DNA of 64,000 nucleotides. Source: Serratia sarumanii (GTDB taxonomy: Bacteria; Pseudomonadota; Gammaproteobacteria; Enterobacterales; Enterobacteriaceae). The notes beneath the pieces are model-generated. The model had not been told where the DNA came from, searched no databases, and worked only from the letters and a program-made list of their open reading frames with translations. Positions 3,207-8,618 of this stretch are shown piece after piece; the stretch's first letter is position 1; each line of letters begins with the position of its first letter. The position numbers and the translations under genes are program-made. Location of the stretch: contig NZ_CP124750.1 of assembly GCF_029962605.1 (NCBI RefSeq), positions 682,001 through 746,000 on the forward strand, given 5' to 3'.

Positions 3207-4133
3207 TTATTCCTGCCGAATATGTTCTACGGGGCTTAATCCCTTCTCCTGCAAATAGAGTTTCATATGTTCAAGCAATCGTCTGACTTTTAATGGCTGG
3301 ATCTCCCTGCGCGGCATAATGGCATAGCAATTAATTTCCGGTAACCGCCAATCGGGCAATATTTCAATCAGCTCGCCGCTGCGCAATTCACGTTCAACGT
3401 TGGCGAAGAAATTGCGAATGATACCCTTGCCGGTCAGCGCCAACTCCTTCATCGCCATACCGCTGTTGGTGAACAAGCGCCCGGTCATACGCATGCGGTG
3501 TTCACCGCCGTTGCGATGGATCAGGCGGACAAACTGCGGGTTGCCGAGCGGCGTAAAGGTGACCCATTGGTGGTGCGTCAGCGCCTGTGGCGAATCCGGC
3601 ACGCCGTGATGCGCCAGGTAGGCCGGCGAGGCGCACAGCACTTCGCGGCAGCGCGCCAGCCGCGTGGAAACGTAGCTGGAGTCGGCCAGCACGCCGCCGC
3701 GTATCGCCAGATCGATGCGCTGCGTGATGAGATCTATCTTCTCATCGTGAATTTCCAGCCGCAGCGTGAGACGGGGATGTTCGTCGAGAAAACTTTGCAG
3801 CGCCGGCACCAGATAGTGAGTGGCGAATTCGGTGGAGGTGGCGACGCGCAGCTCACCGACCAGTTCGCCGCGCAGTGCGGCGATCCGTTGTTGGCCACGT
3901 TCGGCGGCGTGGATCATCAGCAGGCAATCTTCATAAAAGCACAATCCGGCTTCGGTCAGACTCAATGAGCGCGTCGAGCGCAGCAGTAATTGAATGCCCA
4001 GATGTTCTTCCAACTGGCGAATATGCTGGCTGACGGCGGAAGTCGTCATGCCCAATTCTTTTGCCGCCATGCTGAATGCGCCGCAATCGACCACTTTTGA
4101 GAAAATGGCCATGCGTTTTAAAATATTGCTCAT
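3207..4133 (-). CDS. LysR-family transcriptional regulator divergent from isonitrile operon
   Basis: A 308-residue LysR-type regulator. The N-terminal winged helix-turn-helix (about residues 5-60) reads FSMAAKELGMTTSAVSQHIRQLEEHLGIQLLLRSTRSLSLTEAG. A periplasmic-binding-protein-like effector domain begins near residue 90 (LRVATSTEFATHYLVPAL). It is transcribed away from the isonitrile synthase gene with 190 AT-rich bases between them, the usual layout for a LysR protein that controls its divergent neighbour. The effector and targets cannot be read from the sequence. I see no match to a named E. coli regulator. Confidence 0.88.
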   Translation of the reverse strand: MSNILKRMAIFSKVVDCGAFSMAAKELGMTTSAVSQHIRQLEEHLGIQLLLRSTRSLSLTEAGLCFYEDCLLMIHAAERGQQRIAALRGELVGELRVATSTEFATHYLVPALQSFLDEHPRLTLRLEIHDEKIDLITQRIDLAIRGGVLADSSYVSTRLARCREVLCASPAYLAHHGVPDSPQALTHHQWVTFTPLGNPQFVRLIHRNGGEHRMRMTGRLFTNSGMAMKELALTGKGIIRNFFANVERELRSGELIEILPDWRLPEINCYAIMPRREIQPLKVRRLLEHMKLYLQEKGLSPVEHIRQE

Positions 4134-4261
4134 AGTTTGTTAAGCACAACTTAACCAAGATTGTGAATTATACGGGCTAATAATATAGCACTATCTCTTC
4201 TATATTGCCTGGAGCACATAAACGCCGGGCTGATTATTATTTCGCAGAGTTTTTTCTCTTT

Positions 4262-4290
4262 TTGATAAATCTTATTGCGCTTATCAATAA
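4262..4290. promoter_or_regulatory. overlapping inverted repeats, candidate regulator operator
   Basis: Two nested dyads lie 34-62 bases before the isonitrile synthase start: TTGATAA (4262-4268) with TTATCAA (4281-4287), and TTATTG (4272-4277) with CAATAA (4285-4290). LysR proteins bind such partly symmetric AT-rich sites in divergent promoters. The assignment is inference. Confidence 0.4.
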
Positions 4291-4323
4291 TGCACCCGCG
4301 CCACATCGCAACAGGAGCTCATT

Positions 4324-5289
4324 GTGGACAGCGCTCAGAAAGAAGAAATATCGTTAAAAATCCTACGTGAATTATTGCAATACCGCCGCCGCTTCCCCGG
4401 CGACGATACCTCGATTGCCGAAGAAGAACGGCGGGTCACTCAGGTGCAATTGCCGCGCATTCGGGCATTCATTGAAAACGAGCAACGTATCGAATTCGTG
4501 CTGCCGGCCTTTCCCACCAAGTCGCCCAACACCAACAAGGTGATCGGCGCGGTGCCGGACATGGCGGAGCGGCTGTCGCTGATCTTCCTCAACTCGCTGT
4601 GCCAGCGCATTCAACTCTATTACCCGCCGGGGGCGCATATCGTTATCTGCTCCGACGGCCACGTGTTCGGCGATCTGATCCGCGTCAGCGATGAAGCGAT
4701 CAACCACTATCAGCGTGAGATTGAAAGCCTGCTGCATGAAGTGGGCGCGACGCACCTGAGCGTGTTCAACCTCGGCGACGTCAAAGGCCTGGCGGAACAT
4801 ACCGATGATTACGATCTGCTGCGCCGGCTGTTGGTGGAGGGCTATGCCGAATCGGAAGAGGCGATCAAGCAACAGCTGATGCAGGACGAACAGGGCCTCT
4901 TGCTGTACCGCGCCATCACGCGCTTCCTGTATGAAGACAGCCAGCTGCCGGGCTACAGCGGTTCCAACGCCGCGCTGCAGAAAGACGCCAAACAACGTGC
5001 CTGCGGCGTGATCCAGCGCAGCTGGGCCTGGGGCAACCTGCTGGCGCAGCATTTTCCGGCGGCGATCCGCCTGTCGATTCACCCGCAGCCGGCCGACAGC
5101 CTGAAAATGGGCATCCACATGATGCCGACCAAAGACGACTGGCTGACGCCGTGGCACGGCGTGGCGGCCAACGTGAACGGCCAGTTCGTGCTGATGAAGC
5201 GTAAAGACGCGCAGAGCCTGGACGGCGAACTGGTGGAGATCCGCGGCACGCCGAGCCATTACCTGATCGAACAACCGCAGATGGCCTGA
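4324..5289 (+). CDS. isonitrile (isocyanide) synthase, PvcA/IsnA family
   Basis: A 321-residue member of the DIT1/PvcA family. These cytosolic enzymes convert the alpha-amino group of tyrosine or tryptophan into an isonitrile, taking the carbon from ribulose 5-phosphate. Family landmarks include ILRELLQYRRR at the N-terminus, LPAFPTKSPNTNKVIGAVPDMAE near residue 60, the YPPGAHIVICSDGHVFGDL block near residue 100, and LSIHPQPADSLKMGIHM near the C-terminus. The start is GTG with an AGGAG site six bases upstream (4313-4317). It is the first gene of a three-gene operon with an oxygenase and a glycosyltransferase, matching isnA of rhabduscin-type clusters. The amino acid substrate, probably tyrosine, is inferred. 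Confidence 0.9.
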   Translation: MDSAQKEEISLKILRELLQYRRRFPGDDTSIAEEERRVTQVQLPRIRAFIENEQRIEFVLPAFPTKSPNTNKVIGAVPDMAERLSLIFLNSLCQRIQLYYPPGAHIVICSDGHVFGDLIRVSDEAINHYQREIESLLHEVGATHLSVFNLGDVKGLAEHTDDYDLLRRLLVEGYAESEEAIKQQLMQDEQGLLLYRAITRFLYEDSQLPGYSGSNAALQKDAKQRACGVIQRSWAWGNLLAQHFPAAIRLSIHPQPADSLKMGIHMMPTKDDWLTPWHGVAANVNGQFVLMKRKDAQSLDGELVEIRGTPSHYLIEQPQMA

Positions 5290-5385
5290 GGCCGTGGCGG
5301 GCTTTTGCGCCCGAAATCCTGGCGGGCGCGTTTTTGACGGCACGTTGCCGTGTGAGCAGCACATTCGATGCAAGGAGAATCACCG

Positions 5386-6249
5386 ATGAACAACCAACCG
5401 CTTAATTGCCATATTCAACCGAATACCCCGTTTGGCGCGATCCTGACGCCGCAGCATCCGGGGCAAAAGATCGGCGAGCTGCCGGTGGCGGCGCTGCGGG
5501 CGCTGGCGCAGGAACACCACTTGCTGGTGCTGCGCGGATTCGACTCGGGTTTCAGCGAGGCGGAAGTTCTGACTCGCTACGCTGAGCAGTGGGGCGAGAT
5601 CATGATGTGGCCGTTCGGCGCGGTGCTGGACGTGAAGGAGCATCCGGACGCCAAGGATCATATCTTCGACAGCAGCTACGTCCCGCTGCACTGGGATGGC
5701 ATGTATAAGCCGACCATCCCCGAGTTCCAGCTGTTCCACTGCGTGGCGGCGCCGTCGCCGGACGAAGGCGGATGCACCACCTTCGTCGACACCACGCGGC
5801 TGTTGGCCAATGCGGACGAAGCGCTGCTGGATCAGTGGCTGTCGATCTCGATCACCTACCGCATCAAGCAAGTGGTGCATTACGGCGGCGAAGTCTGTTC
5901 GCCGCTGGTGGTGCAGCACCCGAACGGCAGGGGCTTAATCATGCGCTACAATGAACCGCCGACGGAAGGAAAAAAATTCCTCAATCAACATGCGCTGGAA
6001 TACCACGGCGTGCCGGAACACCAGCAGGAACAGTTCCACCACACTCTGCAGCAGCACCTGTACGATCCGCGTCACTATTATGCCCACCAATGGCAACAGG
6101 GCGACGTGGTGGTGGCGGACAACTTCTCGCTGCTGCATGGCCGTGAGGGCTTTACCGCCCGTTCCGCGCGTCATTTGCAGCGCGTGCATATTCAGAGCAA
6201 CCCGGTGTGTGCCAATCTGGCGCTGAAGCCGGCCAACGCAGAAGCGTAA
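5386..6249 (+). CDS. Fe(II)/2-oxoglutarate oxygenase, PvcB/IsnB family
   Basis: A TauD/TfdA-type non-heme iron dioxygenase of 287 residues. In isonitrile pathways this partner oxidatively decarboxylates the isocyano acid to a vinyl isonitrile. The iron ligands are visible as H102-W-D104 and H251 (LLHGREGF), with arginines at 262 and 266 that could bind 2-oxoglutarate. The start at 5386 has AAGGAG eight bases upstream; an in-frame ATG at 5368 overlaps that ribosome site and is rejected. It lies 96 bases after the isonitrile synthase and 9 bases before the glycosyltransferase, so the three are probably one transcript. Confidence 0.9.
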   Translation: MNNQPLNCHIQPNTPFGAILTPQHPGQKIGELPVAALRALAQEHHLLVLRGFDSGFSEAEVLTRYAEQWGEIMMWPFGAVLDVKEHPDAKDHIFDSSYVPLHWDGMYKPTIPEFQLFHCVAAPSPDEGGCTTFVDTTRLLANADEALLDQWLSISITYRIKQVVHYGGEVCSPLVVQHPNGRGLIMRYNEPPTEGKKFLNQHALEYHGVPEHQQEQFHHTLQQHLYDPRHYYAHQWQQGDVVVADNFSLLHGREGFTARSARHLQRVHIQSNPVCANLALKPANAEA

Positions 6250-6258
6250 AGGAGCATT

Positions 6259-7533
6259 ATGGCAAGGATACTGATGGCGGCGGTCGCCACTCCGGGGCAC
6301 GTCTACCCGATGTTAGCCATCGCTCGCCACCTGATTGCCCAAGGGCATCAGGTGCGGGTGATGACCGGCGCGCTGTTTCGCGAACGCGCCGAGGCGGCGG
6401 GCGCGAGCTTCGTGCCGTTCGACGCGCAGGTGGATTTCGATTACCGCCACCTGGAAGAGCACTTCCCCGAGCGCGCCGCGCTGCCGCCGGGCAATGCGCA
6501 GATGGCGCTGGCGCTGAAGGATTTCTTCGCCGCGCCGATCCCGTTGCTGGATCGGCAGCTGCGTGCGGCCATCGCCGCCGAAAAGACCGATCTGCTGATG
6601 GTGGAGAACTGCTTCTACGGCGTGCTGCCGCTGCTGCAGTCCGCTGAGCGGCCGCCGGTCTTCGGTATCGGCGTTACGCCGCTGTCGTATTCTTCGCGCG
6701 ATGCTATTTTTTATGGCCCGCGTATCCCGCCGGCGCTGCTGCCGCAGGCGTTGACCCGTGAGCAACTGGTGGATGAGGAAACGCGCGTGCTGATCGATGA
6801 CGTGCAGCAGAGCTTCGATGCGGCGCTGCTGCAGGCGGGCGGGCGGGCGCTGGATCGCCCGTTCACCGACGCGCTGATCGGCGGCTGCGAGCGTTTCCTG
6901 CAGCTGGCTACCACGGCGCTGGAATATGAGCGTGACGATCTGCCGAGCGGCGTGCGATTCGTCGGCCCGCTGCGCAGCGGCGGCCAGCCAGCGGCGGAAG
7001 AGACGCTGTGGGAGGCGGACGATCGTCGGCCGCTGGTGATCGTGTCTCAGGGCACGCTGGCCAATGTCGATCTGCATCAGCTGATCGTGCCGACGCTGCA
7101 AGCGCTGGCGCATCTGCCGGTGCGGGTGCTGGCCACCACCGGCGGACGGGCGACGGAAGGGCTGATGGACGCGCTGCCGGGCAATGCCAGAGTGCGGGAG
7201 TTTATCTCCTTCGAACGCTGGCTGCCGGAGACGGCGCTGCTGATCACCAACGGCGGTTACGGCTCGATCAACTATGCGCTGGACAGCGGCGTGCCGCTGA
7301 TCGTCGCCGGCACCGGCGAGGACAAGCTGGAGGCGGCCGCGCGCGTGGTGGCCGCTGGCTGCGGCATCAGCCTGCACACCAGCACGCCAAGCGCCGAACA
7401 GATCCTGGCGGCGGCGACGCGCATTCTGCAGCAGCCGATCTATCGGCAACGTGCGGCGCTGGTGCGTGAGGACTATGCCCGCCACGACGGGCTGACGGCG
7501 ATCGCCAACGAAGTGGCCGCCATTACCGCCTGA
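6259..7533 (+). CDS. GT1-type glycosyltransferase of the isonitrile operon
   Basis: A 424-residue UGT/MGT-like enzyme with a GT-B fold. The N-terminal acceptor half begins ARILMAAVATPGHVYPMLAIARHLIAQGHQV. The C-terminal nucleotide-sugar half carries the diagnostic block WLPETALLITNGGYGSINYALDSGVPLIVAGTGEDK at about residues 320-360. The histidine common in plant UGTs (THCG) is replaced by NGGYGS, as in many bacterial members. Nine bases after the oxygenase, it most likely glycosylates the phenol of the aryl-vinyl isonitrile, as in rhabduscin and byelyankacin. The sugar donor cannot be read from sequence, and no sugar-biosynthesis gene lies nearby. Confidence 0.88.
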   Translation: MARILMAAVATPGHVYPMLAIARHLIAQGHQVRVMTGALFRERAEAAGASFVPFDAQVDFDYRHLEEHFPERAALPPGNAQMALALKDFFAAPIPLLDRQLRAAIAAEKTDLLMVENCFYGVLPLLQSAERPPVFGIGVTPLSYSSRDAIFYGPRIPPALLPQALTREQLVDEETRVLIDDVQQSFDAALLQAGGRALDRPFTDALIGGCERFLQLATTALEYERDDLPSGVRFVGPLRSGGQPAAEETLWEADDRRPLVIVSQGTLANVDLHQLIVPTLQALAHLPVRVLATTGGRATEGLMDALPGNARVREFISFERWLPETALLITNGGYGSINYALDSGVPLIVAGTGEDKLEAAARVVAAGCGISLHTSTPSAEQILAAATRILQQPIYRQRAALVREDYARHDGLTAIANEVAAITA

Positions 7534-7554: not shown

Positions 7555-7579
7555 AGGCGCCGTTTTCGGCGCCTTTTTT
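7555..7579 (+). terminator. terminator of the isonitrile operon
   Basis: A perfect 8-bp stem AGGCGCCG / CGGCGCCT with a TTTT loop and a run of T. It lies 22 bases after the glycosyltransferase stop. Confidence 0.9.

Positions 7580-7766: not shown

Positions 7767-8618
<852 letters not shown>

What the first reader, a model, noticed from the sequence alone, without database searches (positions are those of the whole stretch)
3207..7533. Compact isonitrile-glycoside operon (IsnA-IsnB-glycosyltransferase) with divergent LysR
Three tightly spaced genes encode a PvcA/IsnA isonitrile synthase, a PvcB/IsnB 2-oxoglutarate oxygenase with its HWD...H ligands intact, and a GT1 glycosyltransferase. This is the gene set that makes tyrosine-derived vinyl isonitrile glycosides such as rhabduscin (Xenorhabdus/Photorhabdus phenoloxidase inhibitor) and byelyankacin. 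Established knowledge covers the chemistry of IsnA and IsnB. The product here, the sugar, and a role against insect melanisation or in copper binding are inference.
Basis: partly seen in the sequence, partly recalled or inferred. Interest (0 to 1): 0.8.

Follow-up and report, generated by a model that had tools for sequence, protein, structure and literature searches.

The report
Serratia operon for a sugar-linked isonitrile
A three-gene operon kept across free-living Serratia looks built to make a sugar-capped isonitrile from tyrosine, like the insect-immunity blocker rhabduscin, whereas a published study credits what is very probably this same operon with a different, iron-binding coumarin.

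Summary
Window 4324-7533 holds isnA (L-tyrosine isonitrile synthase), isnB (Fe/2OG desaturase, iron ligands intact) and a GT1 glycosyltransferase gene, with a divergent LysR. In the genus, 26 of 30 genomes carry GT and exactly one PvcA-family gene; the four without are 1.5-3.6 Mb genomes. IsnB has both markers of vinyl-isonitrile formers and branches with relatives of two biochemically proven ones, apart from paerucumarin PvcB. The GT clade is sister to the Xenorhabdus/Photorhabdus rhabduscin GTs. Over 80 named loci GT (44) and PvcC (11) never co-occur. The likeliest product is a tyrosine vinyl-isonitrile O-glycoside. This conflicts with Lin et al. 2016 (PMC5109203): the S. marcescens 'pvc cluster', very probably this operon, was reported to make 2-isocyano-6,7-dihydroxycoumarin under RssAB/iron control. 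The sugar may not be rhabduscin's: a donor-site acid (D355) kept in Serratia is Gly/Ser in the rhabduscin lineage. Rhamnose (byelyankacin) cannot be the genus-wide sugar: 12 of 26 operon-bearing genomes lack RmlD over cut-off. A known kind of cluster; the value is the testable contradiction. No structure model was obtained.

The parts
3207..4133 (-). divergent LysR-type regulator, 308 aa; likely regulator of the operon (role inferred)
   Evidence: LysR_substrate and HTH_1; orthologue beside isnA in 13 of 13 named Serratia loci and in none of the other 67 loci; not the best match of PtxR's genome (PtxR ranks 7th)
4134..4323 (.). LysR-isnA intergenic control region; LysR-proximal half strongly conserved
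   Evidence: alignment of 38 Serratia rows and identity counts
4139..4155 (.). perfect inverted repeat GTTAAG-N5-CTTAAC, of the T-N11-A kind of LysR box (kind recalled)
   Evidence: only site in the window with up to 1 mismatch, 0.03 expected; kept in 37 of 38 Serratia rows, 26 of 27 distinct
4262..4291 (+). sigma-70-like promoter candidate for isnA (TTGATA-18-AATAAT)
   Evidence: 10 of 12 consensus positions; consensus match only
4324..5289 (+). isnA, L-tyrosine isonitrile synthase, 321 aa
   Evidence: NF045653 649.8 bits over cut-off 600; PF05141; PDB 9dhm, 9dh4, 3e59 relatives
5386..6249 (+). isnB, Fe/2OG desaturase of the vinyl-isonitrile (PIsnB) type, 287 aa
   Evidence: 7tcl 396 bits against PvcB 3eat 281 bits; K and N at the two markers, iron ligands present; tree
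6259..7533 (+). GT1 glycosyltransferase, 424 aa, homologue of rhabduscin glycosyltransferase; D355 in the donor motif GEDK
   Evidence: 57-58% to X. nematophila GT, 61-62% to the main Photorhabdus GTs; tree; motif
7555..7574 (+). terminator-like hairpin, probable end of the operon
   Evidence: 8-pair stem with T run

Best explanation
The operon makes a tyrosine-derived vinyl-isonitrile O-glycoside. IsnA turns the amino group of L-tyrosine into an isonitrile; IsnB oxidises the benzylic carbon with loss of CO2 to give 4-(2-isocyanovinyl)phenol; the GT caps the phenol with a sugar from an activated donor. The divergent LysR probably controls it, and published work adds RssAB/iron control of what is very probably this promoter in S. 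marcescens. Shown by sequence: the families, the IsnB type by markers and tree, the GT's kinship, the genus-wide conservation, the absence of PvcC and PvcD at the locus. Inferred: the product, the sugar, the LysR's role, and any action on tyrosinase, phenoloxidase or metals.
For: IsnA passes the L-tyrosine isonitrile synthase equivalog. IsnB: K and N at the positions that PMC9467999 ties to vinyl isonitrile; in a 34-row branch (95/93) with relatives of the proven Photorhabdus and A. hydrophila enzymes, while P. aeruginosa PvcB and five other L+C rows form a separate branch (100/99). GT clade sister to the rhabduscin GT clade (97/93 and 98/94, join 87/86); the catalytic-type His14 is kept in 161 of 161 rows. 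GT and PvcC never co-occur in 80 loci: 44 with GT, 11 with PvcC. In X. nematophila isnAB-GT is enough for rhabduscin in E. coli (PMC6386379, part 1 read).
Against: PMC5109203 reports LC-MS and NMR of a coumarin from cells overexpressing the S. marcescens pvc cluster, absent in the deletion with vector only. The two IsnB markers are correlates: single swaps did not change the product, and 6 Streptomyces loci have R+N together with PvcC and join the PvcB side of the tree, weakly (83/29). The genome has an HpaB 45% identical to PvcC about 81 kb away, so hydroxylated products are not excluded. S. entomophila supernatants did not inhibit phenoloxidase (PMC6386379). No metabolite data here.
Confidence: 0.8

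Rival explanations
1. Paerucumarin-type pathway: the operon is a true pvc cluster whose product is 2-isocyano-6,7-dihydroxycoumarin, an Fe3+ chelator that feeds back on RssAB; the third gene is incidental and ring hydroxylation is done elsewhere, for example by HpaB.
For: PMC5109203 (parts 1-2 of 6 and passages): product assigned by LC-MS and NMR; deletion delays swarming and raises biofilm, reversed by the cluster or by the added coumarin. HpaB 45% identical to PvcC in the genome.
Against: IsnB is of the CO2-losing type by markers and tree, and a coumarin needs the carboxylate kept; no PvcC or PvcD in any of the 13 Serratia loci; the third gene is a GT. The passage lists five one-proton NMR singlets where the named structure has three C-H positions (my count from the structure's name).
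Confidence: 0.12
2. Within the glycoside reading: the product is rhabduscin itself, the GT using TDP-Fuc4NAc from the enterobacterial common antigen route (rhabduscin's exact sugar is recalled).
For: WecD over cut-off in all 26 operon-bearing genus genomes (28 of 30 in all), WecE and WecD side by side in the own genome; GT 57-62% to the X. nematophila and main Photorhabdus GTs.
Against: D355, opposite the donor-pair acid of CalG2, OleI and Kcn28, is Gly (22) or Ser (1) in 23 Xenorhabdus/Photorhabdus rows and Asp in 20 of 20 Serratia/Pectobacterium/Dickeya rows. Aeromonas with the D-type GT lacks WecD and WecE over cut-off (3 of 3).
Confidence: 0.3
3. Within the glycoside reading: the product is byelyankacin, the alpha-L-rhamnoside of the same aglycone.
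For: [quoted passage not shown] the own genome has an RmlD over cut-off.
Against: RmlD is over cut-off in 14 of 30 genus genomes; 12 of the 26 operon-bearing genomes lack it, so TDP-rhamnose cannot be the donor across the genus.
Confidence: 0.08

Closest known systems
Rhabduscin cluster isnA-isnB-GT of Xenorhabdus nematophila
   Same: Same three genes in the same order (18 of 18 named Xenorhabdus loci); homologous IsnA, IsnB and GT; K/R and N markers in IsnB.
   Different: No LysR orthologue in the Xenorhabdus loci; GT only 57-58% identical, with D355 where Xenorhabdus has Gly.
Photorhabdus rhabduscin genes (isnAB with GT elsewhere)
   Same: Homologous IsnA, IsnB (58% to a close relative of PIsnB, 7tcl) and GT (61-62% to the main copies).
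   Different: GT not beside isnAB in 12 of 12 named Photorhabdus loci, as PMC6386379 says of TT01; donor motif GEGK or GESK.
Pectobacterium and Dickeya isnA-isnB-GT loci
   Same: Nearest GTs outside Serratia and Rouxiella: 68-69%; same gene order in 5 intact Pectobacterium loci; D355 kept.
   Different: No LysR orthologue divergent from isnA. Product not known to me.
Paerucumarin pvcABCD of Pseudomonas aeruginosa
   Same: IsnA and IsnB are homologues of PvcA and PvcB; a LysR gene (PtxR) lies near both.
   Different: IsnB 44% identical with other marker residues; no PvcC or PvcD; GT instead; LysR not PtxR's orthologue.
S. marcescens CH-1 'pvcABC' (KC291199, sma0021), PMC5109203
   Same: Very probably this operon: three genes, and one PvcA-family gene per genome in 26 of 26 carriers of the genus.
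   Different: Published product is a coumarin chelator. KC291199 itself could not be read here, so the identity is inferred.

Membership tests
Rhabduscin-type vinyl-isonitrile glycoside cluster | L-tyrosine isonitrile synthase (IsnA) | tested here: met
   NF045653 649.8 bits, cut-off 600
Rhabduscin-type vinyl-isonitrile glycoside cluster | IsnB of the decarboxylating type | tested here: met
   K and N markers and iron ligands, tree branch 95/93 with relatives of two proven enzymes; activity itself not tested
Rhabduscin-type vinyl-isonitrile glycoside cluster | GT homologous to the rhabduscin GT, in the cluster or the genome | tested here: met
   57-58% to the X. nematophila GT, sister clade
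Rhabduscin-type vinyl-isonitrile glycoside cluster | Product is a vinyl-isonitrile glycoside | not testable with these tools
   needs metabolite or enzyme assay
Rhabduscin proper | GT with the donor specificity of the Xenorhabdus enzyme | tested here: inconclusive
   donor genes present but D355 differs
Byelyankacin (rhamnoside) | TDP-rhamnose donor available wherever the operon is | tested here: not met
   RmlD over cut-off in 14 of 26 operon-bearing genomes
Paerucumarin pvcABCD | PvcB-type (isocyanoacrylate) second enzyme | tested here: not met
   K and N instead of L and C; outside the L+C branch
Paerucumarin pvcABCD | PvcC and PvcD in the cluster | tested here: not met
   no match in 13 named Serratia loci; an HpaB 45% identical to PvcC lies about 81 kb away
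Paerucumarin pvcABCD | Product is 2-isocyano-6,7-dihydroxycoumarin | not testable with these tools
   claimed for S. marcescens in PMC5109203

The most novel reading that the evidence does not exclude
The accepted product of the RssAB-controlled Serratia 'pvc cluster' is wrong: a genus-core operon makes a vinyl-isonitrile glycoside whose sugar is not rhabduscin's, because the rhabduscin lineage changed a donor-site acid to glycine while Serratia kept it. An iron-sensing two-component system would then tie swarming and biofilm choice to a tyrosinase/phenoloxidase-inhibitor class of compound rather than to a coumarin chelator, and the swarming phenotype of the deletion would need a new explanation, such as metal binding by the isonitrile or by a catechol formed by HpaB.
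Probability: 0.4. Interest if true: 0.72.

Novelty: new member of a known kind. Interest (0 to 1): 0.52.

Why it matters
It puts a rhabduscin-type pathway at a largely fixed place in the chromosomes of Serratia, a genus far broader than the nematode symbionts where that pathway was worked out. It also sets up a cheap test of a published account of how S. marcescens senses iron and decides to swarm: two purified enzymes and a few deletions decide between a coumarin chelator and a vinyl-isonitrile glycoside.

Tried and rejected
LysR as orthologue of PtxR, the LysR gene near the P. aeruginosa pvc operon: not supported. In PA7 the PtxR gene ranks 7th for the window's LysR and the best hit lies elsewhere.

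Plasmid origin: tblastn of the GT against the plasmid collection found 106 records, every one under 60% identity; the nearest (Variovorax, 46%) sits beside an NRPS gene and the Enterobacter ludwigii one (37%) beside unrelated genes, with no annotated isnAB within about 5-6 kb (that gene table is incomplete).

Rhamnose as genus-wide sugar: rejected. Fuc4NAc as donor of the whole GT family: not supported, as three of three Aeromonas genomes with the GT, and P. weihenstephanensis, lack WecD and WecE over cut-off; a second GT-bearing Pseudomonas has WecE but not WecD.

Structure model of the GT, to see D355 in the donor site: not obtained, the machine was busy at six tries, so no fold search was run. 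The place of D355 rests on HMMER alignments; the CalG4 alignment has a gap there and is less clear. That this acid touches sugar hydroxyls is recalled.

S. entomophila: not among the 80 named loci (only the best 80 of 318 were kept), so the negative phenoloxidase result of PMC6386379 could not be set against its gene content.

Papers: Crawford et al. 2012 (PNAS) is not held, so rhabduscin's exact sugar is recalled. (search for a rhamnosyltransferase structure paper) was listed but none of its papers was opened. Searches gave nothing of use.
Full report
WHAT IS THERE. The window is a stretch of a Serratia chromosome (genus read from the named loci; own genome 5.19 Mb, window at C1:682001-746000). 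Between ispH (1979-2932) and dapB (7797-8618) lie a LysR gene on the minus strand (3207-4133) and, divergent from it, isnA (4324-5289), isnB (5386-6249) and a GT1 glycosyltransferase gene (6259-7533). IsnA passes the NCBIfam equivalog for L-tyrosine isonitrile synthase, IsnB is a TauD-family Fe/2OG enzyme, the GT is EryCIII/MGT-like. Nearest solved structures by sequence: 9dhm and 9dh4 for IsnA; 7tcl (396 bits) ahead of PvcB 3eat (281 bits) for IsnB; CalG2 and other macrolide or enediyne GT1s for the GT. ispH and dapB are named from their neighbourhood and my reading of the frames; they were used as markers.

HOW WIDESPREAD. The GT is found at 712 bits or more in 26 of 30 genomes of the genus, and PF05141 occurs exactly once in the same 26; the four without are 1.5-3.6 Mb. 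In a sample of 394 genomes of the order, 8 have IsnA, two of them only at 37-39% identity. A scan of one genome per species kept the best 80 of 318 confirmed isnA loci, with names. In 13 of 13 named Serratia loci the order is LysR(-), isnA, isnB, GT. ispH precedes in 12 of 13 (the thirteenth contig starts too late). dapB follows within 720 bp in 11 of 13; in S. quinivorans L031 other genes lie between, and in S. liquefaciens L028 no dapB was seen in the rest of the locus. A LysR orthologue (590 bits or more) was seen beside isnA in those 13 and in none of the other 67 (best other 156 bits).

WHICH CHEMISTRY. PMC9467999 (parts 1-3 of 5 of the text read) shows that Photorhabdus PIsnB loses CO2 to give a vinyl isonitrile and P. 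aeruginosa PvcB gives an isocyanoacrylate, and that the kinds differ at two positions: K/R and N/H against L and C. The rule was used there to pick an A. hydrophila enzyme that proved to be of the PIsnB kind. Serratia IsnB has K and N, the iron ligands and the substrate arginine. In the IsnB tree (57 rows) it lies in a 34-row branch (95/93) that holds close relatives of both proven enzymes; P. aeruginosa PvcB and five more L+C rows form another branch (100/99). Tally of the 80 loci: K/R+N with GT, no PvcC, 43; K/R+N with neither, 15, of which 12 are Photorhabdus, whose GT lies elsewhere (so PMC6386379 for TT01); K/R+N with PvcC, 6, all Streptomyces; L+C with PvcC, 5; L+C with neither, 2; one broken Pectobacterium locus with GT; 6 loci without an IsnB row and 2 with other residues. 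GT and PvcC co-occur in 0 of 80. Against too simple a reading: the Streptomyces rows have the K/R+N markers with PvcC and join the PvcB side of the tree, weakly (83/29), and PMC9467999 reports that single swaps do not change the product. The markers are correlates.

THE GLYCOSYLTRANSFERASE AND ITS SUGAR. The GT is 69% identical to a Dickeya, 68% to a Pectobacterium and a Rouxiella, 61-62% to the main Photorhabdus, 55% to a second P. asymbiotica and 57-58% to the X. nematophila GT, which a database names 'rhabduscin glycosyltransferase'. In the GT tree (40 rows) the Serratia/Rouxiella/Pectobacterium/Dickeya clade (97/93, with one P. chlororaphis row) is sister to Photorhabdus plus Xenorhabdus (98/94, with a Providencia row); the join is 87/86; the Aeromonas GTs lie outside, a place flagged as a meeting of long branches. 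Five columns separate 23 Xenorhabdus/Photorhabdus rows from 20 Serratia/Pectobacterium/Dickeya rows at 95% or more on each side; one is 355: G 22 and S 1 against D 20. HMMER alignments put D355 opposite the acid of the donor D/E-Q pair of CalG2, OleI and Kcn28 (its contact with sugar hydroxyls is recalled). Over 161 rows D 114, G/S 46, E 1. WecD is over cut-off in 28 of 30 genus genomes, all 26 carriers among them; WecE was tested in the own genome, where it is present. RmlD is over cut-off in 14 of 30, all carriers. Aeromonas (3 of 3 tested) has the D-type GT without WecD or WecE over cut-off. My reading: the rhabduscin lineage changed its donor and Serratia may keep an older one for a common sugar; Fuc4NAc stays open.

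REGULATION. The LysR-proximal half of the 190-bp gap is unusually conserved between the two Serratia groups: against S. quinivorans 81 of 92 positions agree, against 69 of 98 in the isnA-proximal part and 63 of 128 fourfold sites of isnA; S. sp. PL17 (85 of 92, 69 of 98, 60 of 133) and S. plymuthica (84 of 92, 61 of 98, 88 of 137) are alike, while the two near relatives show no contrast. It holds GTTAAG-N5-CTTAAC, kept in 37 of 38 rows, 26 of 27 distinct (rows are related, and named and unnamed loci may repeat a genome). That LysR binds there and drives the operon is inference.

THE CONFLICT WITH PRINT. PMC5109203 (parts 1-2 of 6 and passages) found that phosphorylated RssB binds the promoter (-349 to +38) of S. 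marcescens 'pvcA' (sma0021; pvcABC, KC291199), that deleting the cluster delays swarming and raises biofilm, and assigned the product as 2-isocyano-6,7-dihydroxycoumarin by LC-MS and NMR from overexpressing cells. As 26 of 26 carriers in the genus have a single PvcA-family gene, that cluster is very probably this operon; the accession could not be read here. Its genes fit badly with the assignment: IsnB of the CO2-losing type, no PvcC or PvcD at the locus, a GT third. But an HpaB 45% identical to PvcC lies about 81 kb away, so a hydroxylated product is not ruled out. In ten paper searches I saw no listing that corrects the assignment or proposes a glycoside for Serratia; I judged by listings, and most subscription journals are missing. 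A 2019 review of swarming inhibitors also names the compound (PMC7027876, listing only). That isnAB homologues exist in S. marcescens is in print (PMC6386379, part 1, citing PMC4683029).

ROLE. Rhabduscin inhibits insect phenoloxidase (PMC6386379, part 1 and passages), its aglycone the alternative complement pathway (PMC4683029 passages), byelyankacin mushroom tyrosinase at 2.1 nM (PMC10420840 passage). A like action here is inference. Against it: X. nematophila mutants of the cluster stayed virulent in Spodoptera, and S. entomophila supernatants did not inhibit phenoloxidase (PMC6386379).

VERDICT. It is a member of a known kind of cluster, kept across a genus; its interest is that it makes a published product assignment directly testable.

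Noticed in passing
L038 1077-2042 and L089 2075-3040 (Pectobacterium sp. CFBP8739, P. brasiliense): isnA stands without isnB or GT although 8 kb of downstream sequence is held; in L038 the next frames are unrelated.
   Followed up: partly
L092, L096, L097, L099, L101, L102 (Streptomyces): IsnA, IsnB with the vinyl-isonitrile markers R+N, and a PvcC homologue stand together, a mix not seen in the other 74 loci; the product cannot be told from the markers.
   Followed up: no
L090 7626-9830 (Actinacidiphila acididurans) and L100 7947-9833 (Candidatus Uabimicrobium amorphum): One long frame matches both IsnA and IsnB, as if the two were fused.
   Followed up: no
L049 7983-9943 (Candidatus Fukatsuia symbiotica): A 3.1 Mb symbiont genome keeps isnAB with K+N markers but no GT at the locus, and has WecD and WecE over cut-off.
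   Followed up: no
L031 11239-16145 (Serratia quinivorans): About 5 kb with a DapA-like, a dehydratase-like, a transporter-like and a GntR-like frame lies between GT and dapB (names are my reading of the frames).
   Followed up: no
L088 8001-11226 (Pectobacterium sp. PL152): isnA, isnB and GT all appear as fragments in different frames: gene decay or poor sequence.
   Followed up: no
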